Of a stretch of DNA of 24,843 nt, positions 3,254-24,843 are shown one piece after another. The notes beneath the pieces are model-generated. The model made no database searches. It was not told the DNA's origin and saw only the letters and a list, made by a program, of their open reading frames with translations. Made by a program: the position numbers and the translations under genes. Origin of the DNA: a virus; IMG/VR virus record IMGVR_UViG_3300046463_000849, positions 1-24,843 of that record; one strand, given 5' to 3'. Position 1 is the first letter of the stretch. The number at the start of each line of letters is the position of its first letter.

Positions 3254-3262
3254 GCTTCCTCG

Positions 3263-5507: not shown

Positions 5508-6064
5508 GGCACCAAGGTTTCATTGGGACCCGGCGGCGGGTTGTCGAACACGTAAACGCGGTCCTTGATCTGGAAATATGACTGTCCGCCGACGGCTGGC
5601 AGGTTGCGCTTGTCGACGAACAGTGTATCTCCCGACTTGGTCACCGGAATGGCGTTGGGATCGCCACCGCTTAGATCGATGACGGGCGCCGTCTTCGCTG
5701 CGCCGCCGTCAGGCTTCGTCAAATACGTGGGTTCCGGGGGGGCGTCCGGTGTCTTGCCGAAGGTGATCTTCTTGATCCGTTCAATCACCACGAAATTGTC
5801 GGGGTTGCCCTCCTGTTGAACCTTGACCTTCTCGGTCTCGCGGCTTGTCTCGGTGAGCCGCTGGTCCTGTTTTTTCGTGTTGAACCCGATGCCCGCTGCC
5901 GGCTGCAGGGCTGGGGTCTCGATCGCGCTCGGCAAGGTGCCGGCAACGCCCCAGTTGACGTGCGCGGTCTGGGTCGGCTGCTTGACCGAGGTCGCGACGA
6001 GGCGTTGCGTGTTGAAAGGCTGCGGCGGCGCAAATGGCCGGACAATCTGTTCAAGCGCTGACAT
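5504..6064 (-). CDS. Tail-tip associated protein of unknown function
   Basis: A 186-residue hydrophilic protein starting MSALEQIVRPFAPPQPFNTQ. The N-terminal 100 residues are proline/glutamine-rich with a charged stretch (KKQDQRLTETSRETEKVKVQ); the end is more regular (SGDTLFVDKRNLPAVGGQSY; FQIKDRVYVFDNPPPGPNET). I do not recognise it; it could be a linker or minor fibre component. ATG at 6064 shares its A with the hub stop. Its TGA overlaps the GTG start of the next gene. The longer frame to 6490 lies inside the hub gene and is a shadow. Confidence 0.7.
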   Translation of the reverse strand: MSALEQIVRPFAPPQPFNTQRLVATSVKQPTQTAHVNWGVAGTLPSAIETPALQPAAGIGFNTKKQDQRLTETSRETEKVKVQQEGNPDNFVVIERIKKITFGKTPDAPPEPTYLTKPDGGAAKTAPVIDLSGGDPNAIPVTKSGDTLFVDKRNLPAVGGQSYFQIKDRVYVFDNPPPGPNETLVP

Positions 6065-8445: not shown

Positions 8446-8879
8446 CAGACCTCCTCGAACTCCATGGTCCATGCCACGCCAGCTTCCCATTCCGCGATCG
8501 TGGCGTCGAGGGGCGTTGTCATCATCATCGAGAGGCGGGGCCGGTAGAATGTCCAGGGCCCGACAACCCGCGAGCTGCCGTCGACGACCGGCCTCTCCGG
8601 GGTTCCGCCAGTCAGGTAGGCCAACTCCTCGATGCAATCGATCGTCACCAGCCGGCCGGGCCAGACACCGTCATTGGCGGGCGGGCTCTGGTCGTTGCCG
8701 GTGATGACCGTGCGGAATTTCTGGAACTGGGAGGGGCTGAGGTTGATCAAGGCGCCGTTGACGGTGCGGCGCATGTTCGCCGAGGCGGCAATCGGGATCA
8801 GCTGCTGCTTCAATCCGCGTGCCGAGTATGGGGGGATGCCCATTCCCGTGAGGACGAGCAGCGTGTCGAAATCGGCCAT
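8445..8879 (-). CDS. Conserved tail-tip protein following the tape measure
   Basis: A 144-residue protein with TGMGIPPYSARGLKQQLIPI, NMRRTVNGALINLSPSQFQK and a short GVWPGRLVTIDCIEELAYLT segment. I recognise this pattern from phage tail modules of alphaproteobacteria, where it sits between the tape measure and the baseplate hub, but no function is established; a distal-tail or tail-tip initiator role is inferred. ATG at 8879 shares its A with the tape-measure stop, and the stop overlaps the next ATG, so it belongs to a translationally coupled chain. Confidence 0.8.
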   Translation of the reverse strand: MADFDTLLVLTGMGIPPYSARGLKQQLIPIAASANMRRTVNGALINLSPSQFQKFRTVITGNDQSPPANDGVWPGRLVTIDCIEELAYLTGGTPERPVVDGSSRVVGPWTFYRPRLSMMMTTPLDATIAEWEAGVAWTMEFEEV

Positions 8880-11344: not shown

Positions 11345-11386
11345 TTGCGCACATCAACTTCATTGATTTTTAACACTCCGAGGCGG

Positions 11387-11755
11387 ATGAATGGCCCGAT
11401 GAAAAAGGGACTGAAAACTGCTCTCGCCGTGGTCGCGCCGGCCGGCGCGATTCTCCTGATGACTGTCGTCGCGGTCGCGCTCCACGATCCAGGCGCGCCC
11501 CGGGCCCAAAACCGCGTGCAACAGCACAGCGTCAGACCCGCCTATTGCGCCGGCTCAGGCACCTACCGCCTCCCCGAGTGCGGCTTGACCGAGAAGCAAG
11601 CGCTCGAAGTGGAGGCAGTTTCAGTCAGGGAAAAGCAGGAGCGGGATTACCGCGCATTGATGGGTTGCTTGAACTTCTCTTACCGCGGCGTGCATCCCTA
11701 CAGCGACGAAAGCTGTCTGGACGACGCAGACCGAAGATATCAGGCGGGACATTAG
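11387..11755 (+). CDS. Plus-strand membrane-anchored/exported small protein (moron candidate)
   Basis: A 122-residue protein on the strand opposite to the tail operon. Residues 9-32 (GLKTALAVVAPAGAILLMTV...) form a single hydrophobic segment preceded by MKK, a signal anchor or signal peptide. The remaining part has four cysteines (YCAG, PECG, MGCLN, ESCLDD), suggesting a disulphide-bonded periplasmic domain. It fills the 407-base gap between gp10-like and tape-measure genes almost exactly, and its TAG overlaps the opposing TAA. GAGGCGG precedes ATG at 11387; the in-frame ATG at 11399 is an alternative. Upstream is A/T-rich (GATTTTTAAC), a weak promoter candidate. Opposite orientation and export signal suggest host-altering cargo; the function is unknown. 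Confidence 0.65.
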   Translation: MNGPMKKGLKTALAVVAPAGAILLMTVVAVALHDPGAPRAQNRVQQHSVRPAYCAGSGTYRLPECGLTEKQALEVEAVSVREKQERDYRALMGCLNFSYRGVHPYSDESCLDDADRRYQAGH

Positions 11756-12231
11756 GTCACATCGTCGATCGCCGCCTTGATCGCCTCTGTCGCTTCCGGC
11801 CTCGTCGCCGCGAAGGGGCCGCGCAGGAACATCCGGGCGGTAATGTTTACCCGCCGCTGGTAGGACCTTACGTCCTCTCCGCGCCGGCGCCTGAAAGCCT
11901 GCACTTGAACCGAGCCGGTTGCGCCGTATTCAAGGGCCGCGGCTTTCCCGGCGTCGTAATTGCCCCTTTTGCCGCTGCCGGCACCCTTGTCGATGATCAC
12001 CCGGACCCGGGCGCGCACCCAGTCGGGGCCGCTGTCGAGGAACCCCTGGATCTCGTTGAGGAGTTTCCCCGTCCGCACCGGTACGGCCGCCTTCACCCGC
12101 GACAGCATCTTCTCCTCGATCGGCCGCAGCCGGACGAGGAGGGCCTTTTGCAGGTTTGGCGGGAGGTCGGTGAACCGGGCAATCTCCTTGGTCTCGTTGA
12201 AATCGAAGGACAAGGTGATCGGTGCCGCCAT
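11752..12231 (-). CDS. HK97 gp10-like tail/neck protein
   Basis: A 159-residue basic protein: LPPNLQKALLVRLRPIEEKM, LSRVKAAVPVRTGKLLNEIQ, then a beta region (DWVRARVRVIIDKGAGS) and a C-terminal ARMFLRGPFAATRPEATEAI helix. The VPVRTGKLLxxI motif is characteristic of gp10-type phage proteins, which usually sit between head-closure and tail-terminator genes. Here it lies after the chaperones and before the tape measure. ATG at 12231 follows GTGAGGGG, a strong SD. Its TAA overlaps the TAG of the convergent plus-strand gene at 11753-11755. The role in tail completion is inferred from family. Confidence 0.75.
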   Translation of the reverse strand: MAAPITLSFDFNETKEIARFTDLPPNLQKALLVRLRPIEEKMLSRVKAAVPVRTGKLLNEIQGFLDSGPDWVRARVRVIIDKGAGSGKRGNYDAGKAAALEYGATGSVQVQAFRRRRGEDVRSYQRRVNITARMFLRGPFAATRPEATEAIKAAIDDVT

Positions 12232-13416: not shown

Positions 13417-13878
13417 TTAGGTGCCGGCTACCTTGTAGGGATAGGTAAAGACGATCGTCAGCAGCATCCGCCTCTCCCTCGACTCGGCCACGGCCGGCTC
13501 CAGCACGCAGCTCTCGTAGCGGATTTCGCCGTCGGCGGTCGTTCCCGACGGGTCGGCGCCGATGGCCGCGAGGAGTTCCGTGTCTTGCGTCAGCGCCGAG
13601 AGAAAGCGCTCGGCGCACTGGTTCAAAAGCGTCCCGACATCCGGCTCCGAGGCGTAGGCGAGGATGAAGATTTCCGGCGTCAGTTCCCGGTTCTGCCGAC
13701 GCGAAAAACGCTCGCTCAGGGGCCCGTCGAGCCGCGTCTCCGACCCGTCGTGGATGATAATCGCCGGCCGGGTAAGACCCGCAGCGTCGGCGGCATTGCG
13801 TACCGCCGCGTTGATGCCCGACGTCCCCTGGGCGATGAGGAGGAGACGGGCGAGGATCGTCTCGCGACCGGAGGCCAT
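13417..13878 (-). CDS. Tail terminator / minor tail protein
   Basis: A 153-residue protein: N-terminal helix (MASGRETILARLLLIAQG), a beta/alpha middle with RPAIIIHDGSET and the RRQNRELTPEIFILA strand, a helix SALTQDTELLAAIG, and a final strand RMLLTIVFTYPYKVAG. This alternation, length and position directly before the tail-tube gene match tail terminators (lambda gpU/HK97 gp10-region proteins), which cap the tube and join it to the head. ATG at 13878 lies 6 bases after the previous stop and has no clear SD, so coupling is likely. No diagnostic motif; assigned by pattern and synteny. Confidence 0.65.
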   Translation of the reverse strand: MASGRETILARLLLIAQGTSGINAAVRNAADAAGLTRPAIIIHDGSETRLDGPLSERFSRRQNRELTPEIFILAYASEPDVGTLLNQCAERFLSALTQDTELLAAIGADPSGTTADGEIRYESCVLEPAVAESRERRMLLTIVFTYPYKVAGT

Positions 13879-13884
13879 CAGCAG

Positions 13885-14277
13885 TTACGGCAGCGTGAGG
13901 ACCGCTACCTGCAGCTCCTTGTCGGAATAGTCGATAAAGAGCACATTCCCGGTCTGTGCCCAGCCAGGGGACTTGAAGGGACCGAAGATTGCGATAGGAA
14001 CCGCGGCGGAGGCGGGCTTAACCGAGTAGGTCTCGATGTCGCCGGCGCGGTTCAGCGAATCCACGATGCTGGTGAAGCTGATCGTGTGCGCGATCGTGCC
14101 GCTGTTGTACGCGAGGACCATCGTCTTCCCGTCGATCAGAGCGGTCTGACGGCTTATCGCGACGTCGCTTGTCGAGGTGAAGGAGGGTGTGGCCGCGTCG
14201 CTCCCGATCGGCAGCGTCGGGTAGGACGTCAAGAGACTGACGCCGGCGGCATTTGCGACGATGTTGGTGCGTGCCAT
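13885..14277 (-). CDS. Small virion protein of unknown function
   Basis: A 130-residue beta-rich protein starting MARTNIVANAAGVSLLTSYP. It is Ser/Thr/Ala-rich, has no cysteine, no membrane segment and no catalytic motif, and ends YSDKELQVAVLTLP. ATG at 14277 has AGGGAG eight bases upstream. A 125-base non-coding gap separates it from the LamG gene. Composition and place suggest a decoration or surface component, but the function is unknown. Confidence 0.65.
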   Translation of the reverse strand: MARTNIVANAAGVSLLTSYPTLPIGSDAATPSFTSTSDVAISRQTALIDGKTMVLAYNSGTIAHTISFTSIVDSLNRAGDIETYSVKPASAAVPIAIFGPFKSPGWAQTGNVLFIDYSDKELQVAVLTLP

Positions 14278-14402
14278 GGTTTTTGCTCCCTGTGGAAAAG
14301 GGGTTGCTGGGTGTTTGGGTTTGCGCCGCCGAGGGCGTTTATGCGGGAGAGGGTGCGTGAGGTGGCCGGATGGTCCTGGCGCGGTAGACGCTGCCGGGGG
14401 CT

Positions 14403-15194
14403 TTAGTCGCTCGGGCTGGTGCTCGCGTTGGTCAGAGAGCCGGTTAGAGTGAAAGCACCGCCCGTTCCGAGGTTCGGCTGCCCGAAGGCCGAGGCGTCGT
14501 CGGAGAAAAAGATTGCTGGAGCTGTTCCCGTTGGCGTCGAGCCGTCCGCACCAAGATCGACGGGTTTGATGCCAGCGGTCACGAACTTATCGAGCGTCGC
14601 AGATGGGATATCACCCGCGATAAGTAATGATTGACCAGGAGCTATCCATAAATCAGCAACATCTCCGATAAATTCATCACCCCCAAAAGTATCCGCGCCG
14701 ACCATAAATGACAAACCATTGAAGGCTATCGTAAACGGTGCACCGTTAAAGATCGCAGTCCCGGCATCAACTCGGTCGAGATATAGTTTTGCAATTCCCG
14801 CTCCGCTGACATCCATACTCAAAAGCACGTGATGCCAGATGTCTAGGGAGATTGCGACGCCCGTCGTATCAATCGAAGCATTGTCGGTGTTCGCCGCGTT
14901 AGCAATATTCTGCGTAAACAGGGAAGATGGGCCGGCAGCCTGCCCAAATCCACAAGTGGAAAGATAAATTCCGGCGGGGTCTACAGTCCAAAGTTGCGCT
15001 GATGCCGCGATAACATGACGACGAAACCAAAATGATACCGAGAGAAGCCCGCTGTCCGTCGCGGTCAAACTGTTTATATTTAGAAACTGACTACCATCGA
15101 AATGCACCGCCTTTGCGACATAGGGAGCACCGCCACCCGCGGCGCTTAGCGCCGCGACCGGTGCTACGAGCCCCCGGTGCGCGGGCAGCAGCAT
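14403..15194 (-). CDS. LamG/concanavalin A-like lectin-domain virion protein
   Basis: A 263-residue protein. Residues about 28-205 fit a laminin-G/concanavalin-type jelly roll: KAVHFDGSQFLNINSL, GLLSVSFWFRRHV, LDIWHHVLLSMDVSGAGIAK, LYLDRVDAGTAIFNG, FMVGADTFGGDEFIGDVADL. The C-terminal 60 residues (KPVDLGADGSTPTGTAPAIF; FTLTGSLTNASTSPSD) are a conserved-looking extension of this phage family. It would bind polysaccharide or glycans on the host or environment, displayed on the virion (inference). Start ATG at 15194 overlaps the upstream stop. The middle of the gene is less G/C-rich than its surroundings (28 of 60 G/C at 14641-14700 versus 41 of 60 at 15601-15660), a sign of separate origin. Confidence 0.8.
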   Translation of the reverse strand: MLLPAHRGLVAPVAALSAAGGGAPYVAKAVHFDGSQFLNINSLTATDSGLLSVSFWFRRHVIAASAQLWTVDPAGIYLSTCGFGQAAGPSSLFTQNIANAANTDNASIDTTGVAISLDIWHHVLLSMDVSGAGIAKLYLDRVDAGTAIFNGAPFTIAFNGLSFMVGADTFGGDEFIGDVADLWIAPGQSLLIAGDIPSATLDKFVTAGIKPVDLGADGSTPTGTAPAIFFSDDASAFGQPNLGTGGAFTLTGSLTNASTSPSD

Positions 15195-15697: not shown

Positions 15698-16072
15698 CTA
15701 TAGATTGAAATCGCCGCGGCATTCGAGTTCGATGCGCACGATCACATCGCCGATCGAGAGCGGGCTGACGATCTCGATGTTGTTGTTCTTGCCGCCGATC
15801 ACCAGCCGGTCGTCCTTTTGCGGAAGGCCTGGCCAGTTCGCTTTCCTGAGGCCGGTCGGCGAGAGGATGACCCGGGTGTTCGGCGCCTCGCCGCTCATCG
15901 GAACCAGCTCTTGCGGATGGTGGGCATCGACCCGGGCCCGAAAATCCGCCGAAAACGACACCGTCCGGTTGCCGGTATCCGGGTCCGCTATGAGGCGCTG
16001 GAGTTGCACCGTGTCGCCAAGGCGTGTCAACTCACGATCCAAATCGGCGATGCACCTCGACGCCTCGCTCAT
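15698..16072 (-). CDS. Head-closure / head-tail joining protein
   Basis: A 124-residue protein that follows the connector with a 4-base ATGA overlap. It begins with a helical segment (ASRCIADLDRELTRLGDTVQ) and continues as a small beta barrel: VSFSADFRARVDAHHPQELV, NTRVILSPTGLRKANWPG, DDRLVIGGKNNNIEIVSP, IVRIELECRGDF. Size, fold pattern and position match head-closure or stopper proteins (SPP1 gp16/HK97 gp7 role), which cap the connector before tail attachment. This assignment rests on position and pattern, not a diagnostic motif. Confidence 0.65.
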   Translation of the reverse strand: MSEASRCIADLDRELTRLGDTVQLQRLIADPDTGNRTVSFSADFRARVDAHHPQELVPMSGEAPNTRVILSPTGLRKANWPGLPQKDDRLVIGGKNNNIEIVSPLSIGDVIVRIELECRGDFNL

Positions 16073-16746
16073 GCGGTAACCGGGACGCGGTAGGGCAGGA
16101 GGAGCTGTGCGATGTCGGGGGGGATGTTGCTTCCCGTCGCGGCCGGGCCGTATTGACGCTCGACGACGCCGGGAATGTTGATCTGGCGCTCGGCCGGGTC
16201 CCGGCCGCGCAGGTAGAAGCGATAGGTCACCATTCTGAGGACCGCGAGCGCGACGTCGAACGGGATCGGCTGGTAGCCCGCCTCGTAGACGACCGTCGTC
16301 ATGCTCGGGTCCCAGGTCGTCGGGTACAGAAGCGTCTTGCTGAGGCGGACCAGCTGGCCGCTCTCGGCCATGAGCTTGTAGTCGATGCCGTCGACGAGGA
16401 CTGTCGCCGTGCCGGGCGGGTCGACCACCGTCAAGGAATCGATGCCGACGATCGGCCAGTGCGAGAGCTGCAGGGTGTCGAGCTGTCCCGGCACCTGATA
16501 GGGATAGGCGTCGCGTTCCGGGTAGATGATGTCCTGCACCGTTTCGACGGCGAACGTGTTCCGGGGCGAGACGCGGTTGCAGAACCTCGCGGCGATCGCC
16601 GACGCCTCGCTGATGGCCCGCTTCAGGAAGGTATCGCTCGACTCGTCGTCCGCGGCGATGTCGAGTTCGTCCTTCACCGTTGCGAGATCGGTGAGGTCCC
16701 TGTTCCCGGCCTGGGACTGGATCGTCGTGACGACGGAAAGGGCCAT
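16069..16746 (-). CDS. Head-tail connector protein (HK97 gp6-like)
   Basis: A 225-residue protein with the pattern of gp6-like connectors that bind below the portal ring: TDLATVKDELDI near residue 18, then SDTFLKRAISEASAIAARFC, and a following beta region (ETVQDIIYPERDAYPYQVPG; LSHWPIVGIDSLTVVD). The C-terminal half contains MTTVVYEAGYQPIPFDVALA followed by VLRMVTYRFYLRGRDP, also typical. ATG at 16746 is chosen because the family homology begins directly after it; AGAGG lies very close to it. The frame extends to 16800 but overlaps the upstream gene. It overlaps the next gene by ATGA, indicating coupling. Confidence 0.85.
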   Translation of the reverse strand: MALSVVTTIQSQAGNRDLTDLATVKDELDIAADDESSDTFLKRAISEASAIAARFCNRVSPRNTFAVETVQDIIYPERDAYPYQVPGQLDTLQLSHWPIVGIDSLTVVDPPGTATVLVDGIDYKLMAESGQLVRLSKTLLYPTTWDPSMTTVVYEAGYQPIPFDVALAVLRMVTYRFYLRGRDPAERQINIPGVVERQYGPAATGSNIPPDIAQLLLPYRVPVTA

Positions 16747-16750
16747 GCCT

Positions 16751-17263
16751 CTAGGCGCCGACCGCCATCCAGTTGACGACGTCGCCCGTGGTAACGGCAT
16801 AGGTCGAGCCGTCGGCGACGGTCAGGGTGCCACCGGAGACGCTGACATGCGCGTCGGCCGTGACCACTGCGCCCGAGCGCAGGATCTGCACGAATTGCGC
16901 GACAACCGTCGTGGCGCCCGTCACGATGTCGAGCGTATGCGCCCCCGCCTCGCCACCCGATACCGTGTGCCGCGCCGCGCGCACCGCCCCCGAACTGACG
17001 AGCCGGTTTGCCCCGACGCCGAATGTCGTCACATTGAGCGCGTCGAGCGCCTTGTTCGCGTCGACGACGAGAGCCTTCGAGGCCGCCGTGGTGCCGGGAG
17101 TGACGGAATGCAGGGTGTTGAGTTCGGTGGCCGTCGCGGTTGTCCCGGTCGGCGCCAGGGCCGCGTCCGCGACCGCCTCGTCGATGACATCCGAAAGGAC
17201 GACCGGCACCGGATATCCCATGGCGCCGGTCGCCGAGACGGTCTGCGTGCGATCTAGCGCCAT
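16751..17263 (-). CDS. Beta-rich virion structural protein (head-fibre/decoration type)
   Basis: A 170-residue protein with the motif TATELNTLHSVTPGTTAASK followed by ALVVDANKALDALNVTTFGV, a pattern common in phage structural proteins where a trimeric coil or fibre repeat leads into a beta domain. The rest is Thr/Val/Gly-rich and ends with a short SGGTLTVADGSTYAV beta stretch. There is no catalytic motif. ATG at 17263 has GGGAG eight bases upstream, embedded in the palindrome GGGAGTTCTCCC. It precedes the connector gene by four bases. The exact virion location is unknown. Confidence 0.7.
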   Translation of the reverse strand: MALDRTQTVSATGAMGYPVPVVLSDVIDEAVADAALAPTGTTATATELNTLHSVTPGTTAASKALVVDANKALDALNVTTFGVGANRLVSSGAVRAARHTVSGGEAGAHTLDIVTGATTVVAQFVQILRSGAVVTADAHVSVSGGTLTVADGSTYAVTTGDVVNWMAVGA

Positions 17264-17305
17264 GGGGAGAACTCCCGGATAATGCGTTTACAGGTCGGAG
17301 CCGGT

Positions 17306-17671
17306 TTAGGGGCCGGCAGCCGTTGGCGCGTCCTGCGTGGTAATGGTCGCGCCCGCTACGTCGGCGGTGATGTCGCCGGGCGCCGCCGGTACGGGATAGT
17401 CGACGCCAATCTCCAGAGCCACGTCGCCGGCGCTGTCGCGAACCGTGAGGACCATCCCCATTGTCGCTGCGCTCGGCAGGGTCAGGGCGTTGACGGCAAG
17501 CGTCGGCTCGCCGTTGGCGTCCGTGCCGATGACGCCGGGAACCACCGCCGGGAGGCTGGAATCGACGCTGAACACGTCGCCGGCGGGGACCGCTTCGACC
17601 GAACCATCGGCGGCCTTGAGCCCGATGCGGACGGTGTAGACGTCGGTCGGCTTCAGAACGATCTTGTCCAT
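17306..17671 (-). CDS. Small Ig-like/beta-sandwich virion protein
   Basis: A 121-residue protein starting MDKIVLKPTDVYTVRIGLKA. The sequence is beta-rich, with VEAVPAGDVFSVDSSLPAVV, TLAVNALTLPSA and GMVLTVRDSAGDVALEIGVD, resembling an Ig-like (big-domain) fold, ending ADVAGATITTQDAPTAAGP. The last 19 residues match 12 of 19 positions of the neighbour's tail. No enzyme motif or signal peptide is seen. ATG at 17671 with GGAG nine bases upstream. A decoration or surface role is inferred from composition and location between head genes. Confidence 0.7.
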   Translation of the reverse strand: MDKIVLKPTDVYTVRIGLKAADGSVEAVPAGDVFSVDSSLPAVVPGVIGTDANGEPTLAVNALTLPSAATMGMVLTVRDSAGDVALEIGVDYPVPAAPGDITADVAGATITTQDAPTAAGP

Positions 17672-17717
17672 GTTTTCTTACTCCGGGTTTTGTGTGGGGA
17701 TTTCAGTCAGCCCGCAA

Positions 17718-17744
17718 GCCCCGCAGGGGTCATCAATGCGGGGC
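17718..17744 (-). other. Intergenic inverted repeat (8-bp stem)
   Basis: GCCCCGCA (17718-17725) and TGCGGGGC (17737-17744) are perfect reverse complements around an 11-base loop. They lie in the 91-base gap between two virion-block genes. There is no T tract on either side, so an mRNA stabiliser or processing hairpin is more likely than a terminator. Confidence 0.4.
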
Positions 17745-17762
17745 CGAAAGGGGAAATGGCGG

Positions 17763-18233
17763 CTATGGTCCAGCCGTGGTCGGCGACACCTGTATCGTCA
17801 CGACGGCGCCCGCTACGTCGAGGGTGATCTGCCGGGGCCTTTCGACATCGAACACACCGGCCACCATGCCGAGTTCGGCGATTTCCGCTTCCAGCGCATC
17901 GTAGAGCGCGGGCCTGATCGGGATCTTCTCGCCGGCCGCGAAATCCTGGTCCTCCAGGACGCCGATCCCGTCGAGCGCCGCGAGCATCTCCTCGATCGCG
18001 GCCTGCCGACCGCGGTGCTCCGCCAGGAGCCCCCGCAACGCCCTTTGGTGTTCGGCACCGGCGGTAGCGGGTGACGCGGCGTGTGTCTCTCTCAGAACCG
18101 TCTTCGCCTGCGGCAGCAATGCGTAAAGCTCGTGCACGGCCGCGTCGAGATAGAGCGTCCCAAGGGGTTCGCCGTCGGCCTCCGCCATTTCGGTGGCGCG
18201 CGCGTGGATCAATGCTCGCAGGCGCTCAAACAT
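17763..18233 (-). CDS. Unknown virion-block protein with helical body and shared C-terminal tail
   Basis: A 156-residue protein I do not recognise. Residues 1-115 look alpha-helical and charged (MFERLRALIHARATEMAEAD; RGLLAEHRGRQAAIEEMLAAL). The last 30 switch to a beta-like segment ending LDVAGAVVTIQVSPTTAGP, closely similar to the end of the next protein (17306-17671). The ATG at 18233 overlaps the zinc-ribbon gene by 8 bases and has GAGGGG upstream, so translation is probably coupled. The tail could be a common docking segment for a virion partner (inference). Confidence 0.75.
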   Translation of the reverse strand: MFERLRALIHARATEMAEADGEPLGTLYLDAAVHELYALLPQAKTVLRETHAASPATAGAEHQRALRGLLAEHRGRQAAIEEMLAALDGIGVLEDQDFAAGEKIPIRPALYDALEAEIAELGMVAGVFDVERPRQITLDVAGAVVTIQVSPTTAGP

Positions 18234-18642
18234 CGTGAACCCCTCGGGTCATGTACCGCTTCCCCGGCCGCGTCTCGACCGGTTCTGCGTCTTCAGGCGG
18301 CTTCGCCTTCACCGGGAACGGGCCCGAATCTCTGGCGGTATCCTCTTCGACAAGACGTGCGGCAACCTCGTCCGGGAGGACACGGGTCTCCCCTGCCTTG
18401 TGCGGCGCCATGTCTTTGGTGAAGGTCACGAGCCGCATGAATACCTCCTGAGAAATCTCGACGCCCGGTGCGCTAAACCACGTCTGGATATGACGACCGC
18501 CATCGTCGCAATCCGGGCAGAGGCTTTCGATCAGGCGGACCTCAGCAGGCAAAGCGCCGAGGATCCTGCGCGGCAAGGTCTTATATTGCCGACAGCAGGG
18601 GCATTCGAGCGTCACGTCGGTTTTAATGTCGAACGGTTTAAT
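18226..18642 (-). CDS. Small zinc-ribbon-like protein, probable ATT start
   Basis: The frame encodes about 138 residues. Near the N-terminus it has ECPCCRQ (about residues 13-19) and, some 30 residues later, CPDCDDGG: a CxxC...CxxC zinc-ribbon pattern. The rest is hydrophilic and proline-rich. No enzymatic function is recognisable. There is no ATG or GTG at a suitable position: the frame overlaps the glycosyltransferase end, and the best signal is AGGAGG followed six bases later by ATT at 18642, overlapping the glycosyltransferase TAA. ATT is a rare but known bacterial start. GTG eight codons later (no SD) and ATG at 18681 (inside the upstream gene) are alternatives. It overlaps the next gene by 8 bases. 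Confidence 0.65.
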   Translation of the reverse strand: MKPFDIKTDVTLECPCCRQYKTLPRRILGALPAEVRLIESLCPDCDDGGRHIQTWFSAPGVEISQEVFMRLVTFTKDMAPHKAGETRVLPDEVAARLVEEDTARDSGPFPVKAKPPEDAEPVETRPGKRYMTRGVHDV

Positions 18643-20095
18643 CGGCCGCCTCCTGCAGCGCTGGCGCCGGTGTGAGGGCATCGGCGAACTTGCCCTTGAA
18701 TTCGGTCTCGCCGCAGTGGCCGAGCTCGATCTCCGGGTCGGCCCAGACCTTGCCGCCGACCGAGCGCCAGAGCTCGCAAAACTGGTAATCCTCGCCGCCG
18801 TCATCCTCGCCAAAACGGAAAAAGCGATGATACCGGGAGCGGGGCTCTTCGGGGAGGCCGGGAAGGTCGATCTTGAGGTCGGGCCGGGCGGCGACAATCC
18901 GATCCAGCGCCTCGCGGGCGACCTTCAGAAACCCGGTGCCGATCGAATGGACTTCGACGGCGCCCATGGCGTCCTGGTTGATCTCGTGGTTCGAGGAGGG
19001 GAAAAGCCGCGCGCACCATTGCGTCTCTTCGGTCTTACGCCGGCCGACGGCTCCGATCACCTCCTTGTCGGACGCGAGGAGCCGGGCGACGCCGTTGGGC
19101 TCCCAACTCATGTCGGCGTCGACATAGAGGAGGTCGGTGAAGTCTGATGCGAGAAACCACGCCGCCAGTTCGTTTCTCGCCTTCGGCAGGTTCGAGCAGC
19201 CGGCGAGAAAGAGCGTGCGGTTACGCACGCCGAGGCGGTCGAGCGTCGTCTTCGTGTCAACGAGGGATCGTGTGTACTGCCAGGCCGTGTCGCGGTGAAC
19301 CGGCGTGCAGATCATCACCGAGCGCGACCGGGCGCGCTCCAGCCGGCGCAATGCCTCGGTGTCGTCGTCATCCTCCGGGGCTTCCGGTGAGAACTGGCGC
19401 AGGTATTCGGCGACCCGCGCGAAGACGTGCGGGCGGTCCTCCTTCGCCCATTCCTGAAGCCGCCTGCCGTCGGCCTCGATCGAACTCTTCGAGGCATAGC
19501 TGGCGGCATAGGTCGCGTCATTGGGCGCCTTGCCGTTGAGGACGTGGCTGTGCTCGGCCTTGACATCCATCAGGATCTTCCAGCACCCGAAGCGCCGGCC
19601 GATGTCCTCGATGATGTCGTCGGCGTAGAAGGACCAGAGCCCGGGGAGGAACCAGAACCCCATTGCCTCGAGAAACCCGAGGTCGAAGACGCTGGTCGGC
19701 GACAGCCGTGATCGCAGTGGGTCGGCGTCGCTCTGCCAGCAGTCGTTCGCCGAGACGATTTTGGTGCGGCCCTTCAGTTCGGCGAGGAGCCGCCGGTCCC
19801 ATCCCGGCGTCGAGGGGATCGCGTCGTCGGCCATGCAGCCGAGCCAGGAGGAGCGAGGAGTTCGCGGCGAGGCGCAGACATCTTCAAGGAATTCCTGGCA
19901 GGCCCCGTTGAAGCCGAGATTTTTGGGCAACACCCGGGAGGACCAGTTCGAGGGATACCGCACGCCGGCGTATTTCTCGCGCTGGTCCGCGCCGTTGATC
20001 AGAACCAGCCCGGGCGAGGTCATACCGGTCTCGACGCAGGCATCGAGCACCTGTTGGAGCCGCTCCGGGCGGTTCATGGTAGGCAGGATGAACAT
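18638..20095 (-). CDS. Two-domain GT-A-type glycosyltransferase
   Basis: This 485-residue protein appears to carry two nucleotide-sugar transferase-like domains. Domain 1 (residues 1-205) starts MFILPTMNRPERL, typical of a GT-A first strand, and has NLGFNGACQEF, an acidic CMADDAIP (about 88-94), FYADD (157-160) and a late EHSH. A charged linker (EAPEDDDDTEAL) follows. Domain 2 (residues 258-470) starts VMICTPVHRDTAW, has the DxD-type motif YVDADMSWEP (324-333), a GTGFLKVAREAL segment, EDYQFCELWRSVGGKVWADP and GHCGETEFKGKF, the order seen in phage-encoded GT-A proteins. It would transfer a sugar in the cytoplasm to a virion protein or a host surface precursor; the acceptor is unknown. Start: ATG at 20095 with GGAGG 12 bases upstream, 19 bases after the previous gene. 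Its presence inside a head operon is unusual. Confidence 0.85.
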   Translation of the reverse strand: MFILPTMNRPERLQQVLDACVETGMTSPGLVLINGADQREKYAGVRYPSNWSSRVLPKNLGFNGACQEFLEDVCASPRTPRSSWLGCMADDAIPSTPGWDRRLLAELKGRTKIVSANDCWQSDADPLRSRLSPTSVFDLGFLEAMGFWFLPGLWSFYADDIIEDIGRRFGCWKILMDVKAEHSHVLNGKAPNDATYAASYASKSSIEADGRRLQEWAKEDRPHVFARVAEYLRQFSPEAPEDDDDTEALRRLERARSRSVMICTPVHRDTAWQYTRSLVDTKTTLDRLGVRNRTLFLAGCSNLPKARNELAAWFLASDFTDLLYVDADMSWEPNGVARLLASDKEVIGAVGRRKTEETQWCARLFPSSNHEINQDAMGAVEVHSIGTGFLKVAREALDRIVAARPDLKIDLPGLPEEPRSRYHRFFRFGEDDGGEDYQFCELWRSVGGKVWADPEIELGHCGETEFKGKFADALTPAPALQEAAD

Positions 20096-20114
20096 GGGCG
20101 CAGGGGTCCTCCGA

Positions 20115-20597
20115 TCAGGTCGGGGCGGGCAGCCGGTCGAACCCGGCCAGGGTCGCGACGATGATCGCGACCGCCGTGTCGGTGCCGCTGGCCGAGAGGT
20201 TCGGCACGATATCGGCCCGAATGTACCGCTTTGCCGACGAGAGGTTGACGTTGATCGAGCTGTGCGAGTTGACGACACCGCCCCCCGAAACTCCGGTCGC
20301 GACAGTGACCCCGGCGGCGCTCGCGTAGGTGGCGAAGGTGCTGTTGTCGGCCGAATCGAGGATCGTCCAGGCGAGCGTCAGCGTCGCACCGCTCGCCAGC
20401 GTCGTCCCGAAGAGCGCGGTGAACTTCGCCGAGAGCGCGGGCGAACCCGCTCCCCCTGAAAGCACGGCCTCCCGGTCGATCGAGATGCCGGTGAGGGTCG
20501 TGTTGTCGCCGGTGCCGGCGGCGGTCCACACCAGAGGGGTTGAGGCGACCCGGTTTTCGACGACCGAGCCGATGTCTTTCTGAATGACCATGTCCAT
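20115..20597 (-). CDS. Small beta-rich virion protein next to capsid (probable decoration/head protein)
   Basis: A 160-residue protein of unknown exact function. It begins MDMVIQKDIGSVVENRV and is rich in Thr, Ser, Gly and Ala with alternating hydrophobic residues; it ends AGFDRLPAPT. Similar proteins occur directly after the major capsid gene in phages of alphaproteobacteria and are usually left unnamed; a head-decoration role is inferred from position. There are no cysteines, TM segments or signal peptide. The ATG at 20597 is chosen because GGAG lies 7 bases upstream; that SD is inside the palindrome CGGAGAACTCCG that touches the ATG. A longer frame to 20747 would run back into the capsid gene and has a low-complexity Arg/Ser N-terminus, so it was rejected. 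Confidence 0.75.
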   Translation of the reverse strand: MDMVIQKDIGSVVENRVASTPLVWTAAGTGDNTTLTGISIDREAVLSGGAGSPALSAKFTALFGTTLASGATLTLAWTILDSADNSTFATYASAAGVTVATGVSGGGVVNSHSSINVNLSSAKRYIRADIVPNLSASGTDTAVAIIVATLAGFDRLPAPT

Positions 20598-20609
20598 CGG
20601 AGTTCTCCG

Positions 20610-20646
20610 AAAAATAAGGAAACGATGGGCCGGACGGCGCCGGCCC
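20610..20646 (-). terminator. Terminator-like hairpin after major capsid gene
   Basis: Just after the capsid stop, minus-strand RNA can form GGGCCGG-(6 nt)-CCGGCCC, a perfect 7-bp G/C stem (20627-20646), followed four bases later by the T-rich stretch TTTCCTTATTTTT (20610-20622). This resembles a partial Rho-independent terminator that would lower transcription of later genes relative to capsid. The gap before the T tract makes it imperfect. Confidence 0.45.
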
Positions 20647-20664
20647 CGGGAGGGGCGCGGCGTC

Positions 20665-22104
20665 CTACGAGATCGCCGGGGCGTACCTGACGGCCTGGAT
20701 GACCGCGACCGCCTGGTCGTGGCGCATCTGGAAGTCGTGCTCGGCAATCGCCCTGATGATCGTCTGGTCGCTCTGGAAGGCCGAGATCGTGGCGCCGGTC
20801 GAATCGATGTAGGTGCCCTCGCGGCTGACCGCGAGTTCGAGCTGCATCGAATCGAGGATCATCGATTCGTCCATCTCCGCGAGGAAGATGAACGAGAGGT
20901 CCTTGTTGCTGCCGTTGGCGTTCCAGTAGCCGTTGCCGATCTGCGTGGTCTTCCGGAACGGGTAGCCGAGCAGCGTCCCGTCGGTCAATTCGTCGCGGTA
21001 GACGTAGACGCCGAGGCTGTTCTGGACGTTGTTCAGGTAGTTGAAGCTGCGCGGGTGCATGAACCAGACGCGCTTCGTATCGGGCACGTTCGCCGTATCC
21101 AGCCGGTTGACGGCCCCGCCCAGTTCGGCCGCGACGGTGGCCAGCGTATAGGTCTGGTTTGCGGTAATGAAGTTGCCGCCGGTCGTATTCGCCGGATCGG
21201 TGCCGTTGACCGCGAAGACCGAGTTGGCGGTCGTCGACCAAACACCGATCGTTCCAGCGTTCGCCCCGACCCAGCCGTTGGCAAAGCTGAGATAACCCCG
21301 CGGGGTGTCCTGCGTACCGTCGCCGAGGAGGAATGCCAGATCCTCGCGAAGCGCGATGACCTTCACCAGGTCGTCGCGCACGAAGGCGTCAACCGCCGGG
21401 TCGGCATACCGCATCATGTCGTTGGACACGGGCACGAGGGCAGTCAGCTTCTTGTAGGTCGCGACGATCGTGCGGAGCGTCTGCTGCGACTGCGCGATTG
21501 CGGTGTTTTCCGCTCCGTAGGAGGCCGTCGCCGCGCTCGCCTGCCCGGGGAGCCTCATCGTGCCCCTCGGCATTGGGATCGTGCGGGGGCCGGCCGCGCG
21601 GACCTGCGCCAGCGGTCGCAGGAGTTCGATGATCTCAGCGATGTAATCGGGCGGGACGATAAAGCCGCCGGCGGGACCCGTGCCGGTGATGAGCGCGCGG
21701 GTGATCGGGTGATTGGCACCGTAGACCCCCTCCGCGATCTTGGCGGGTGAGGTGAACTCGCTCGCGGCCCGGCCGATCATCCGCATCATGCCGCCAACGA
21801 CGAGACCCTTGCTGGTGCCGATGCCGCGCGCCTTGGCGGCCTCGTCGCTGATGTACGGGTCTTTTTCCGGCGAGGCCGGCGCGCGGTAGGCGTTCTCCTG
21901 CCCGGCCACCGGGCGAGCGGTAGCCGCCGAGAGTTCCTGTGCCTCCCGTGCCCGGACGATCTGCGCGTCAAGGTCGGTGACGGCGTCCTTCAGCGTCGGA
22001 TAATCCCGCCTCTGCTGGTCGTCCAGGGTTTCGAGGTTGGCGATTGCCGCGAAAGCATCGTAAGCGGTCGCGCGCCGCTTGATCAGGTCGCTGACCTTTT
22101 CCAT
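20665..22104 (-). CDS. HK97-fold major capsid protein
   Basis: This 479-residue protein forms the icosahedral shell. Residues 1-100 are a charged, helical N-terminal region (EKVSDLIKRRATAYDAF; DAVTDLDAQIVRAREAQ) like the delta/scaffold domain removed by the protease in HK97-type phages. The shell domain then starts near residue 110-145; GPAGGFIVPPDYIAEIIELL is a hallmark of the Phage_capsid family, followed by the AAGPRTIPMPRGTMRLP segment and a long E-loop/P-domain region. The ATG at 22104 is preferred over the TTG one codon upstream because GGAG lies 8 bases before it. The gene directly follows the protease, the standard order. The length is at the upper end for the family because the delta region is retained. 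Confidence 0.95.
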   Translation of the reverse strand: MEKVSDLIKRRATAYDAFAAIANLETLDDQQRRDYPTLKDAVTDLDAQIVRAREAQELSAATARPVAGQENAYRAPASPEKDPYISDEAAKARGIGTSKGLVVGGMMRMIGRAASEFTSPAKIAEGVYGANHPITRALITGTGPAGGFIVPPDYIAEIIELLRPLAQVRAAGPRTIPMPRGTMRLPGQASAATASYGAENTAIAQSQQTLRTIVATYKKLTALVPVSNDMMRYADPAVDAFVRDDLVKVIALREDLAFLLGDGTQDTPRGYLSFANGWVGANAGTIGVWSTTANSVFAVNGTDPANTTGGNFITANQTYTLATVAAELGGAVNRLDTANVPDTKRVWFMHPRSFNYLNNVQNSLGVYVYRDELTDGTLLGYPFRKTTQIGNGYWNANGSNKDLSFIFLAEMDESMILDSMQLELAVSREGTYIDSTGATISAFQSDQTIIRAIAEHDFQMRHDQAVAVIQAVRYAPAIS

Positions 22105-22200
22105 CAAGTAGGCTCCAATGATCAGGAAGGCGGCGTCTCACGACGCTGCGGGAAGCCGTTGCCCAAGCGGCGACTTATTTGGGCGATCCCCGTGGGGATT
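22105..22200 (-). promoter_or_regulatory. Structured leader between protease and capsid genes (three hairpins)
   Basis: Three perfect inverted repeats lie in 96 non-coding bases: ATCCCC/GGGGAT (22186-22199), GCCCAA/TTGGGC (22161-22184) and GCGTC/GACGC (22133-22146). Read as minus-strand RNA, the last has the loop GUGA, a GNRA tetraloop closed by C-G. The capsid Shine-Dalgarno GGAG and ATG follow. The role is unproven: mRNA stabilisation or processing ahead of the most abundant protein is likely. Confidence 0.5.
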
Positions 22201-23703
22201 TCAGTGATCGGCGAAGGCGGAGGGGGAGAGAGCCAGGGCTTCGGCTTCCCTGCGGCGGTAATCGAGGCTGCGCGATCCCTCGTCCTCGGCGACGCCATTG
22301 GGCTTCTGGATCGTCGAATTATCGCCCTCGGCGCCCTGGCCGTTCTCGTCGCCCGTGTCGTCTTCGGGGTCGATGAGGTCGCGGATATATTGCGCCCCCG
22401 CCCGGTGTGCCCGCATCGCCGAGCGGTGCTGGTCCATGGCCGTATCGTGCATGTCGAGGGCCGAGCGCAGGCAGCGCGCCGTCTCCGCCGACAGGGTCTT
22501 GCCCTTGCGGGTGAGGAGCGCCCTTGCACGAGCGGCCCCGACGCGGAACCGCTTCTGCGCCGGCGTCGTCGAGGCCATGATCATCATCATGTCGTCGTCG
22601 CCCAAGCCCTCGCCGCTGTCGTCGTCGGCCTCTTCGCCGCCGATCAGCTCGGCGATCTCCTCGGCGGCCATCGCCAGCATCGCAGTGCCGGCGCTCTGCA
22701 GCGCGGCGGCGATCATTGCCGGAACCTGCGATTCGTCGTCTTCAAGCGCCGCCTCGATCTCGGCTGAGCATTTGAGGTCGGCGAGGCAATCGAGCAGATA
22801 GGCGAACCGGCCAAGATCCCACATGCCGCGCAGCTTGATCGCCGGCGGCGGCACGCGGCGCGCCCGGCGCGGTTTTACGGCACGCTCGGCATCATCACCG
22901 ATCCCGGCCTTTTTCTCGTAGGCCTTGAGGACCTTCTCCGCCTCGTCCTTCGCGTCGCCGATGTCGGCCTGCGGGAGGCGCGAGGCCGCGGCGCGCAGGG
23001 CGCCCTTCGGCACCTTCAGTTCGCCGTCAACCACGTGCGCGATCGGCAGCTTGTAGGAGCCGCGCAGCTTTGGCGCGTCGGCGTCGTAGACGAGGAACCC
23101 CGCCCGCGCCTTCACCGGGTCGAAGTCGTCGCCACCGGCATGGTCGAAGATCGACTTCTCGGCCGCCGGGCCGTCCCAGGCGTCGCTGTCCTCGACCGGG
23201 AGGTTGCGCGCCGCGCCGACTTTCCAGTCCGCCATGTCGATTTCTCCGTTCGCACGCGCCGTGACGATCGCGCCAGGGTCGGCTGGGACGCTGACGAAAC
23301 TGCATTCCAGCAATTCCCAGCGGGTGAAGCGCTGCCCGCCTCTGGGGCGCTTCGGGTCGAGCGGTTCGCCGTCGACCGGGTCGAAGCCCACCGAAACGGC
23401 CGAGATCACGTTCGCCTTGACCAGCCCGCGCACCTCGTCGGCCTTGGGCGACACCCCCAGGGGCGCAAAGGTGATGCGCGCGATGATTTTGTCGTTGCTG
23501 ACCTGGATCTCCGAGGCGCGACCGACCGGGATTTCGGGCGAGTGCTGCCAGAGGACGATCGGGTTGCTTCGGTAGCCGGAGAGGTCGCAGCCCTCGGGCA
23601 CGAGGACGTGACCGTCGCGCGCCTTGAGGCCGGTCGAAAGGACGACCTCTACCTCGTCGTCGCCGAGGCTGGTAACCTGCGCTGGGAAGATCGTGCGGAT
23701 CAT
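22201..23703 (-). CDS. HK97-family prohead protease (peptidase S78) with fused acidic scaffold-like C-terminus
   Basis: This 500-residue protein would mature the procapsid by cleaving capsid and scaffold segments. Residues 15-147 match the S78 prohead protease fold: candidate catalytic His54 in WQHSPE, Ser104 in SAVSVGF, and the ECSFVSVPADP segment around Glu133. Residues about 157-265 form a second domain (WDGPAAEKSIFDHAG, GSYKLPIAHVVDGELKVPKG) that I recognise from other phage protease-fusion proteins. Residues 280-500 are charged and partly helical, with the acidic run EEADDDSGEGLGDDD, and could act as scaffold. The ATG at 23703 is chosen because TTAGGGGGAC lies directly before it and homology begins at once; a longer frame to 23874 lacks family features. 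The stop of the repeat gene lies 8 bases upstream. Typical HK97-type proteases are much shorter, about 200 residues. Confidence 0.9.
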   Translation of the reverse strand: MIRTIFPAQVTSLGDDEVEVVLSTGLKARDGHVLVPEGCDLSGYRSNPIVLWQHSPEIPVGRASEIQVSNDKIIARITFAPLGVSPKADEVRGLVKANVISAVSVGFDPVDGEPLDPKRPRGGQRFTRWELLECSFVSVPADPGAIVTARANGEIDMADWKVGAARNLPVEDSDAWDGPAAEKSIFDHAGGDDFDPVKARAGFLVYDADAPKLRGSYKLPIAHVVDGELKVPKGALRAAASRLPQADIGDAKDEAEKVLKAYEKKAGIGDDAERAVKPRRARRVPPPAIKLRGMWDLGRFAYLLDCLADLKCSAEIEAALEDDESQVPAMIAAALQSAGTAMLAMAAEEIAELIGGEEADDDSGEGLGDDDMMMIMASTTPAQKRFRVGAARARALLTRKGKTLSAETARCLRSALDMHDTAMDQHRSAMRAHRAGAQYIRDLIDPEDDTGDENGQGAEGDNSTIQKPNGVAEDEGSRSLDYRRREAEALALSPSAFADH

Positions 23704-23711
23704 GCGTCCCC

Positions 23712-24843
23712 CTAAGCGGCCAGCAGCAGCCATGGCCAGAGCGCGGAAATTTCGTCGTCGCTGAAATGGTCGAACCTGCCGACCGCCCGGGCTTCGACAG
23801 CCAGAAAACTTCGCAGCTCGCCACAGGGCGCGGTTTCCCCGTGCACCGCGACACTGAATTCCGGCAGTGGACATTCGAGCGCACCGGCGGCGCCGACTGC
23901 TCCGCGAGCCCGAGCCGCGAACCCGAAGAGAGCCGCCGCGCGGCCCTCTCTCGGCTCCTCGACCTCGCCCGAGGCTTCCGCGCCGAACGCCATCAGGTAG
24001 AGGGCCAGGTTGCCCCGGACGGCGCGGTGCCGCCTGCGGGCTGAATGACCGCCGAGGATCGGGGGTTCCCCGGCTGCCGCGGCCGAAATGACGCCTAAAT
24101 CCGCCCGAAGAGCACCCGCCCCGGCCATTGCGGCTGCGACGGCCCGCGCCGTTCCAGCCGCAGCAAAATCGGCGCTCAAGGCCGCCAAACCTACGAACGA
24201 CGCGGCCGTGAGTTCCTTCTCTGCTAAGTTCGCCGAGAGCAACCCCGAACCAGTAAGAACCGCGCTCGCGAATTGCTGCGGCAGGAAATCGGCGGCAAGT
24301 GCGCCTGCACCGCTCAAAAGGCTTATGGCGGCGCCCACGGATGATCCTGCCGCGGCGGCGATCGAGCCCGCGCTGTTCAACGCGCTTACGACGACATCCA
24401 CGGATTCGGGCGCGGCGGCCATCGACCCCACACCAGCCAGGACGTTGGTGACAAACTGCTGCGGCAGAATATCCGGGGCGGTAATGGCACCCGCGCCGAC
24501 AAAGGCGCCGAGGACCTGTTCTCTCGTCAACGTTCCGCCGCCGAGAGACCCGGCCGCGGCGAAGGTGACCGTGACTGCCTCGGCCGCCCGCAGGCCGGCC
24601 GCTATCGATCCAGCACCCGCGAGACTGACCGAAATGAACTGCTCGGGGATGACGTCCGCTGTGATGGCCCCCGCGCCCGCAAGGGTGCCGAGGACCAACT
24701 CGGCCGCCCGCAGACCAGCCGCTATTGATCCCGCACCCGCGAGACTGACCGAAATGAACTGCTCGGGGATGACGTCCGCTGTGATGGCCCCGCCACCAGC
24801 AAGGGTGGTGCCTAAGAACTGTTCCGGTAGAACGCCGGCCGTC
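23712..24843 (-). CDS. Partial repeat-rich virion-associated protein (5' end outside window)
   Basis: The reading frame is open to the right edge, so the start is missing; 376 residues are visible and it ends with TAG. About the first 240 residues are some twelve tandem units of about 20 residues, for example VIPEQFISVSLAGAGSIAAG (present twice), with a conserved LAGAG core followed by a small or acidic residue. The last 125 residues are unlike the repeats: an Arg-rich stretch (GHSARRRHRAVRG), an Ala-rich part, and a conserved-looking end FDHFSDDEISALWPW. No catalytic motif is visible. Regular short Gly/Ala units with alternating hydrophobics suggest a beta-solenoid or fibre-like rod (inference). 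It sits just upstream of the prohead protease, where a portal gene usually lies, and its stop is 8 bases from the protease start. It may be a fibre or decoration protein, or a C-terminal extension of an unseen gene. Confidence 0.7.
   Translation of the reverse strand, partial: TAGVLPEQFLGTTLAGGGAITADVIPEQFISVSLAGAGSIAAGLRAAELVLGTLAGAGAITADVIPEQFISVSLAGAGSIAAGLRAAEAVTVTFAAAGSLGGGTLTREQVLGAFVGAGAITAPDILPQQFVTNVLAGVGSMAAAPESVDVVVSALNSAGSIAAAAGSSVGAAISLLSGAGALAADFLPQQFASAVLTGSGLLSANLAEKELTAASFVGLAALSADFAAAGTARAVAAAMAGAGALRADLGVISAAAAGEPPILGGHSARRRHRAVRGNLALYLMAFGAEASGEVEEPREGRAAALFGFAARARGAVGAAGALECPLPEFSVAVHGETAPCGELRSFLAVEARAVGRFDHFSDDEISALWPWLLLAA
24579..24671. repeat. Direct repeat of about 93 bp (second copy 24699-24791)
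   Basis: The segment 24579-24671 recurs 120 bases further right at 24699-24791 with four visible mismatches. The spacing equals two 60-base (20-residue) protein units, so it reflects recent duplication within the repeat-coding gene. It keeps the reading frame. Confidence 0.9.

What the first reader, a model, noticed from the sequence alone, without database searches (positions are those of the whole stretch)
18638..20095. Two-domain glycosyltransferase embedded in the head operon
The gene sits between the decoration-like protein and the connector region and is transcribed with the capsid genes. Both halves look like GT-A domains with separate acidic motifs (CMADD and YVDADMSW). Expression timed with virion proteins suggests glycosylation of the capsid or of the Thr/Ser-rich decoration proteins next door, rather than classic lysogenic O-antigen conversion. 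Two fused domains would allow sequential addition of two sugars. Virion glycosylation by a phage-encoded enzyme is little described.
Basis: partly seen in the sequence, partly recalled or inferred. Interest (0 to 1): 0.72.

Follow-up and report, generated by a model that had tools for sequence, protein, structure and literature searches.

The report
Double glycosyltransferase beside phage capsid genes
A phage gene lying among the genes that build the virus shell encodes two different sugar-attaching enzymes fused together, one related to the enzyme of an archaeal virus whose shell is sugar-coated, so this phage probably sugar-coats its own particles.

Summary
The gene is real, on the MINUS strand: complement(18638..20095), 485 aa. 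It lies between the major capsid protein (one gene upstream) and the head-tail adaptor (four small ORFs downstream). Both halves model as GT-A glycosyltransferases with conserved acidic motifs. They belong to two families that do not match each other (N: phrog_14945; C: phrog_1574). The C half is related in sequence (profile E 1.7e-5) and structure (Z 18.3) to A197 of archaeal virus STIV, an essential glycosyltransferase whose virus has a glycosylated coat protein.

Two 96%-identical relatives extend past the window's end; both carry a GT9-type glycosyltransferase and an FkbM methyltransferase between portal and protease, so the gene belongs to a glycan-building set inside the head module. Homologues of the C half lie just behind a major capsid gene in 11 of 19 sampled phage types, covering three capsid families (nine share one). 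A related fragment fuses N half, GT17 and C half. dN/dS is 0.09.

Virion glycosylation is the most likely reading (about 0.6); donor, acceptor and activity are untested, and DNA or host-surface glycosylation is not excluded. The principle is known from mycobacteriophages (Freeman 2023) and proposed for STIV: a new variant of a known kind.

The parts
18638..20095 (-). Two-domain GT-A glycosyltransferase, 485 aa, ATG at 20095
19406..20095 (-). N-terminal GT-A domain (aa 1-230), phrog_14945 family; D90, D91, D118, D159, H182, H184 invariant in the 7 aligned sequences (window included)
18638..19342 (-). C-terminal GT-A domain (aa 252-485), phrog_1574 / STIV A197-like; D326 and D328 of the DxD, D436 and C440 invariant in the 29 aligned sequences (window included), H460 in 90% or more
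20115..20597 (-). 160-aa ORF directly upstream of the GT, phrog_5707 (unknown function), 23.7% Ser+Thr; possible decoration protein and possible acceptor
20665..22107 (-). HK97-type major capsid protein (start codon within the ORF not fixed), possible acceptor
22201..23667 (-). Stretch of a longer open frame holding the prohead serine protease domain (S78) and a long C-terminal extension; true start not fixed
18226..18609 (-). Small ORF with two CxxC pairs (zinc-ribbon-like by eye only), next gene after the GT; start codon uncertain
16069..16749 (-). Head-tail adaptor (phrog_442) after the four small ORFs; start codon not fixed

Best explanation
A phage-encoded bifunctional glycosyltransferase made of two GT-A domains from different families. 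Each most likely uses a host nucleotide-sugar and a divalent metal bound by its acidic motif. It is probably made with the head proteins and, with the GT9-type glycosyltransferase and FkbM methyltransferase that close relatives carry in the same head module, builds a short, probably methylated glycan on a virion protein (capsid, or the Ser/Thr-rich protein encoded next to it). Shown: gene, strand, operon-like packing, two predicted GT-A folds, conserved motifs, purifying selection, family relationships, recurring coat-adjacent position. Inferred: enzymatic activity, donor sugars, metal use, acceptor, order of addition, co-expression, and presence of the GT9 and FkbM genes in the window's own phage (its record ends before that region).
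For: Both halves GT-A: N half pLDDT 78.2, best Z 15.9 to polypeptide GalNAc-T2, rmsd 3.2 over 214 residues; C half pLDDT 89.3, best Z 18.3 to STIV A197, rmsd 2.1 over 162. C-half profile finds A197 in the PDB by sequence, E 1.7e-5. A197 is described as essential and possibly glycosylating the STIV coat protein (PMC10551542, passages). In both close relatives the order is portal, GT9, FkbM, protease, capsid-side GT; GT9 over its cut-off in 2 of 2, FkbM in 2 of 2. Coat gene just upstream of the C-type GT in 11 of 19 phage types, three capsid families. Related fragment L017 fuses N half, GT17 and C half in a phage with an HK97-type capsid gene. GT dN/dS 0.09; N half 0.13, C half 0.03.
Against: No biochemical or mass data. 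Nine of the 11 coat-adjacent types share one P22-like coat family (phrog_283), so independent acquisitions may be few. In 7 of 19 types no coat gene was identified near the GT (replication, RNA-ligase, tail or virion-structural neighbours) and in an eighth, L017, the GT is 5 kb from the capsid gene; the largest cluster, 53 loci, is among the seven. The one Streptomyces phage N homologue whose neighbourhood was opened (EGole) is not by capsid genes. GT-A folds also occur in DNA-modifying and envelope enzymes. Three of 3 HK97-type relatives opened have no GT annotated in the slot, so it is not a fixed part of such heads. GT9 support is modest: 22.9 and 21.7 bits per stretch against a cut-off of 22, no PHROG hit, no PDB sequence match.
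Confidence: 0.6

Rival explanations
1. DNA glycosyltransferase: the two domains add sugars to a modified base (5-hydroxymethyl-pyrimidine) of phage DNA to evade restriction.
For: Phage enzymes that put glycans on DNA exist (Pyle 2024, seen only as cited in PMC12619734). Two of 7 N-family members weakly touch TAGT, the TET-associated GT family (best E 0.062); a Streptomyces phage N homologue E 0.053.
Against: The TAGT signals are weak and absent from the window's own protein. The gene sits with head genes and, in relatives, FkbM and GT9 genes. No thymidylate-synthase-type gene (PF00303) in 0 of 3 records G000-G002, with the control ringing in 9 of 14 genomes. The TET/JBP search (PF12851) was also 0 of 3, but nothing rang in its controls, so it shows little. 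All three records are fragments and may lack the early genes.
Confidence: 0.15
2. Host envelope modification: the enzyme alters LPS, capsule or another surface glycan of the host (receptor masking, superinfection exclusion, seroconversion).
For: GT9 is the heptosyltransferase family (Pfam name); fold matches of both halves include wall-polymer enzymes such as TarP and RmlT; one N-family member (L102) lies in a long run of same-strand ORFs that could be a polysaccharide cluster (not profiled).
Against: No GtrA/GtrB-like hit among the neighbours profiled (no membrane-segment test was made). The gene lies inside the head module, and coat-adjacent placement recurs in other phages.
Confidence: 0.17
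3. Cargo (moron) gene that only shares the head operon's transcript, with some other acceptor such as a host protein or metabolite.
For: Three related phages have no GT annotated in the slot; family members also occur in replication regions.
Against: Recurrence behind coat genes of three families; linked glycan genes in the same module of relatives; purifying selection.
Confidence: 0.08

Closest known systems
STIV A197 (archaeal virus glycosyltransferase, PDB 2c0n)
   Same: C half: same GT-A fold (Z 18.3, rmsd 2.1 over 162 residues), significant profile match (E 1.7e-5), virus-encoded; STIV coat protein is glycosylated (PMC10551542, passages)
   Different: A197 has no further domains and comes from an archaeal virus with a double-jelly-roll coat; here it is fused to a second GT-A domain in a tailed-phage head module
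Mycobacteriophage Che8 gp108-gp110 glycosyltransferases (virion glycosylation, Freeman 2023)
   Same: Phage glycosyltransferase genes in a row; mycobacteriophages glycosylate capsid and tail tube; Che8 gp108 looks by eye like GT-A plus methyltransferase, so the enzyme set is similar
   Different: No significant sequence match of either half (at most 6.5 bits); the Che8 genes lie near the genome end, not in the head module
phrog_14945 glycosyltransferases, for example Streptomyces phage EGole gp36
   Same: N half family, 28% identity
   Different: Stand-alone, 218 aa, beside another GT and an adenylyltransferase, not by capsid genes
GT-A plus methyltransferase fusions behind P22-like coat genes (MW202691 and IMG/VR relatives)
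   Same: C-half homologue just downstream of the coat gene
   Different: Fused to a class I methyltransferase-like domain instead of a second GT-A; P22-like capsid

Membership tests
GT-A fold glycosyltransferases | GT-A fold in N half | tested here: met
   AF2 pLDDT 78.2 (best of five models; the others 47-58), Foldseek E 3.5e-6, 877 of 999 chains Z 8 or more
GT-A fold glycosyltransferases | GT-A fold in C half | tested here: met
   pLDDT 89.3, Foldseek E 7.2e-9, best Z 18.3
GT-A fold glycosyltransferases | Acidic metal/donor motif conserved | tested here: met
   D90 and D91 invariant in 7 rows; D326 and D328 invariant in 29 rows
GT-A fold glycosyltransferases | Sugar transfer activity | not testable with these tools
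   needs protein
STIV A197-like GT (C half) | Significant sequence relation to A197 | tested here: met
   profile A6 vs PDB, 2c0n E 1.7e-5, 110 profile positions
Pfam GT2 / Anp1 (GT62) | Score over curated cut-off | tested here: not met
   15.1 of 23.3 and 14.2 of 28.8 bits; 11 of 29 C-family members touch Anp1, best 7.6e-6, and 8 of 29 GT2, best 2.3e-4
TET-associated DNA glycosyltransferase (TAGT) | Score over curated cut-off | tested here: not met
   no hit for the window protein at E up to 1; 2 of 7 N-family members, best E 0.062
Phage virion glycosylation systems (Che8 type) | GT homologous to Che8 gp108-110 | tested here: not met
   scores at most 6.5 bits with either half profile
Phage virion glycosylation systems (Che8 type) | Glycan on capsid or tail protein | not testable with these tools
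   needs virion mass spectrometry
Phage virion glycosylation systems (Che8 type) | Several GTs plus methyltransferase together | tested here: inconclusive
   met in relatives G001 and G002; the window record itself ends before that region, and GT9 is not found in it. That this set typifies Che8 rests on my reading of gp108 by eye

The most novel reading that the evidence does not exclude
An A197-type capsid-glycosylation module is widespread in tailed phages, parked directly behind the coat gene in several capsid lineages. Its enzymes are assembled by domain fusion (GT-A + GT-A, GT-A + GT17 + GT-A, GT-A + methyltransferase, tandem GT-As) to build methylated glycans on phage heads, linking archaeal virus and bacteriophage capsid glycosylation through one enzyme family.
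Probability: 0.4. Interest if true: 0.8.

Novelty: new variant of a known kind. Interest (0 to 1): 0.56.

Why it matters
Virion glycosylation by phage enzymes has been reported for few phages. A recurring coat-adjacent enzyme family with ties to an archaeal virus would give a sequence marker for glycosylated phage heads and make the question of how common they are directly testable. It would also bear on phage stability, adhesion and immune recognition.

Tried and rejected
Recent duplication of one GT-A domain: rejected, the two half profiles do not match each other (hhalign probability 0.6%). Homology to Che8 gp108-110: not found. Whole protein against PDB sequences: nothing significant (best E 0.51); the N-half profile reached only E 0.0077. 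NCBIfam: best E 0.24. Relatives in genome contigs: none among 42 pattern matches, a narrow pattern search. A first C-family profile was too diverse to scan with; a three-row one worked. PF05065 in 21 records hit 1, L017's. In Foldseek's own ranking of the C half the first rows are LH3 and A197 is not among the 50 shown; A197 comes first only in the VIA-align second look.

Own error: the 160-aa ORF was first queried out of frame (20115-20598) and in the Ser/Thr table; searches use the right frame. The 19 phage types come from 60%-identity clusters (23 clusters, several per record) of the C-type GT domains in the loci then held; near-copies of the window (L001-L003, L015, L016) were dropped before clustering. 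The ten proteins were chosen because they looked like coat genes by position and length (nine, in eight types) plus L008; 10 of 10 hit major head protein families. One search then put a P22-coat profile built from the nine on all 93 loci with a C-type GT: 15 of 93 hit (73 of 93 have 1.5 kb or more upstream). The largest cluster (53 loci) was profiled in one representative, L076, three neighbours only: a 2OG-Fe(II) oxygenase, a virion structural protein, and an ORF with weak tape-measure hits. Coat families other than PF05065 and the P22-like profile were not searched in the seven other types. The binomial figures printed assume an invented background of 0.1 or 0.2 and independent types, and are not relied on. 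In one search dN/dS for the protease failed (a TAG in the pair).

Full report
WHAT IS THERE. The window is one IMG/VR virus record of 24,843 bases. The reported gene is on the minus strand, complement(18638..20095): 485 codons, ATG at 20095, GGAGGA ahead of it, codon-position GC 0.64/0.47/0.85. In transcription order: prohead protease domain (within the 22201-23667 stretch), HK97-type capsid protein (20665-22107), a 160-aa ORF (20115-20597; phrog_5707, unknown; Ser+Thr 23.7%), the GT, an ORF with two CxxC pairs, three more small ORFs, head-tail adaptor phrog_442 (16069-16749). Gaps around the GT are 19 nt upstream and about 28 nt downstream (start of the next gene uncertain). No minus-strand promoter or terminator consensus was found in 16000-24000, and the + strand matches are at chance level (sigma-70 types only). 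Two relatives, G001 and G002, carry the gene at 96% identity. dN/dS is 0.09 for the gene, 0.13 for the N half and 0.03 for the C half, against 0.03 for the capsid gene.

TWO DIFFERENT GT-A DOMAINS. Residues 2-202 hit phrog_14945 (glycosyltransferase, 3e-15) and 252-467 hit phrog_1574 (unknown function, 1e-20); a third, weaker hit is phrog_2675 (DNA methyltransferase, 1.5e-5, aa 80-255), not followed up. Pfam GT2 and Anp1 touch the halves below cut-off. AlphaFold2 gave pLDDT 78.2 for the N half (best of five; the others 47-58; 7 sequences) and 89.3 for the C half (29 sequences). Against the PDB both are GT-A: the N half is nearest to polypeptide GalNAc-transferases (Z 15.9, rmsd 3.2, 214 aligned), but ranks are close and the fold is common. 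For the C half Foldseek ranks lysyl hydroxylase LH3 first, and A197 is not among its 50 rows shown; the VIA-align second look puts A197 of Sulfolobus turreted icosahedral virus first (Z 18.3, rmsd 2.1, 162 aligned), then LH3, Mimivirus R699, Mnn9 and ColGalT1. A197 is also the only significant sequence match of the C profile in the PDB (E 1.7e-5; the next is 0.45). The halves do not match each other, so this is a fusion of two families rather than a recognisable duplication. In N: D90, D91, D118, D159, H182, H184 are invariant in 7 rows. In C: D326, D328, D436, C440 are invariant in 29 rows, with H460 in 90% or more.

THE SURROUNDING GLYCAN GENES. The window ends before the portal gene; portal and GT9 are not found in its record. 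In both relatives the order is portal, GT9-type glycosyltransferase, FkbM methyltransferase, protease, and further on the GT. In G002: portal 2700-3698, GT9 4750-5283, FkbM 6539-7000, protease 9717-10022, GT 13688-15142. In G001: 3-578, 1630-2163, 3419-3880, 6593-6898, 10564-12018. FkbM is strong (2.4e-16; phrog_8156 methyltransferase 8.9e-26). GT9 is modest: 23.5 bits against a cut-off of 22 for the protein, 22.9 and 21.7 for the matched stretches (over the cut-off in both), no PHROG hit, no PDB sequence match. That these genes exist in the window's own phage is inferred.

RELATIVES. With annotated phages and the window they form 23 clusters in 19 phage types. In 11 of 19 a major capsid gene lies just upstream, at most three genes between: the window (PF05065), MW202476 (phrog_9953) and nine P22-like types. 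Of those nine, eight are shown by phrog_283 (the L004 type through its sister L023) and one, L034, by the profile only. In L017 (HK97-type capsid) the GT lies about 5 kb downstream. In the remaining seven types no coat gene was identified near the GT: L005, L010, L025 and L038 have replication or RNA-ligase neighbours, L035 and L076 have virion-structural neighbours, L007 lies in a tail/structural region. Nine of the 11 share one coat family, so they may reflect few acquisitions. Architectures vary: L017 has N half + GT17 (1.6e-15) + C half in one frame, cut by the contig end; L004, L034, L040 and L088 have the C type fused to a class I methyltransferase-like domain (best PDB match a putative O-methyltransferase, 8e-4); L040 has three C-type genes, L024 and L071 two each. 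N-half relatives found were few in viral contigs (7 and 4 loci) but include many Streptomyces phages (63 of 123 records are Streptomyces phages; of the 60 rows listed, all Streptomyces rows match the N half). In the one opened, EGole, the gene sits beside another GT and an adenylyltransferase. Three related HK97-type phages have two or three small hypothetical ORFs in the capsid-to-adaptor slot and no GT annotated there.

MECHANISM. Most likely each domain takes a host nucleotide-sugar and adds one residue to a glycan on a virion protein, helped by GT9 and capped or altered by FkbM methylation. Predicted fold, motifs, selection and gene neighbourhood are shown; activity, donor, acceptor and order are inferred. 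A197 is described as an essential glycosyltransferase that possibly glycosylates the STIV coat protein (PMC10551542, passages). Mycobacteriophages Che8, Corndog and Myrna are reported to glycosylate capsid and tail proteins with their own enzymes (Freeman 2023, not held; seen as cited in passages of PMC12363180, PMC11256854 and PMC12619734). Che8 gp108-110 are not detectably homologous to either half.

WHAT IS OPEN. DNA glycosylation cannot be excluded. Thymidylate-synthase-type genes were not found in 0 of 3 records G000-G002 exceptions, that is none of the three has one (control positive in 9 of 14 genomes), and none has a TET/JBP match, but that search had no positive control; all three records are fragments. 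A weak TAGT signal exists in some N relatives. Host-surface modification is also open. A paper search for phage + FkbM + capsid + glycosyltransferase + virion returned four papers; some searches listed others. By title and the start of abstract shown, none describes coat-adjacent A197-type enzymes in tailed phages. Only listings and a few passages were seen, and the library lacks most subscription journals.

Noticed in passing
L014:4691-5779 (G001): An ORF that reads by eye as a DNA methyltransferase lies between the tape measure gene and the next gene in one relative; it is not at this place in the window or G002.
   Followed up: no
L017:1181-1906: A 241-aa ORF with no Pfam or PHROG hit sits in the slot after the post-capsid ORF of a related phage, where the window has the GT; it may be another cargo gene of that slot.
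   Followed up: partly
window 23712-24842 (-): Ala/Gly-rich frame with imperfect repeats of the type AGAGAITADVIPEQFISVSLAGAGSIAAGLRAAE, cut by the record end, upstream of the protease; another minus frame is open over the same stretch, so which is coding is not settled.
   Followed up: no
L014:2171-4687 against window 8879-11344: The tape measure protein of G001 is about 51% identical (gapped tblastn) to the window's, while G002's is 97% and the 6064-8232 protein is 98% in both, which suggests recombination within the gene.
   Followed up: no
L076:4881-5615: In the representative of the largest C-type GT cluster (53 loci) a 2OG-Fe(II) oxygenase lies just upstream of the GT and a virion structural protein just downstream, an arrangement that recalls hydroxylysine glycosylation; LH3 and ColGalT1 are also fold matches of the C half.
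   Followed up: partly
window 18638-20095 (-), aa 80-255: A weak hit to phrog_2675, a 599-position family labelled DNA methyltransferase (1.5e-5), may mean that this GT-A domain also occurs fused to methyltransferases in other phages.
   Followed up: no
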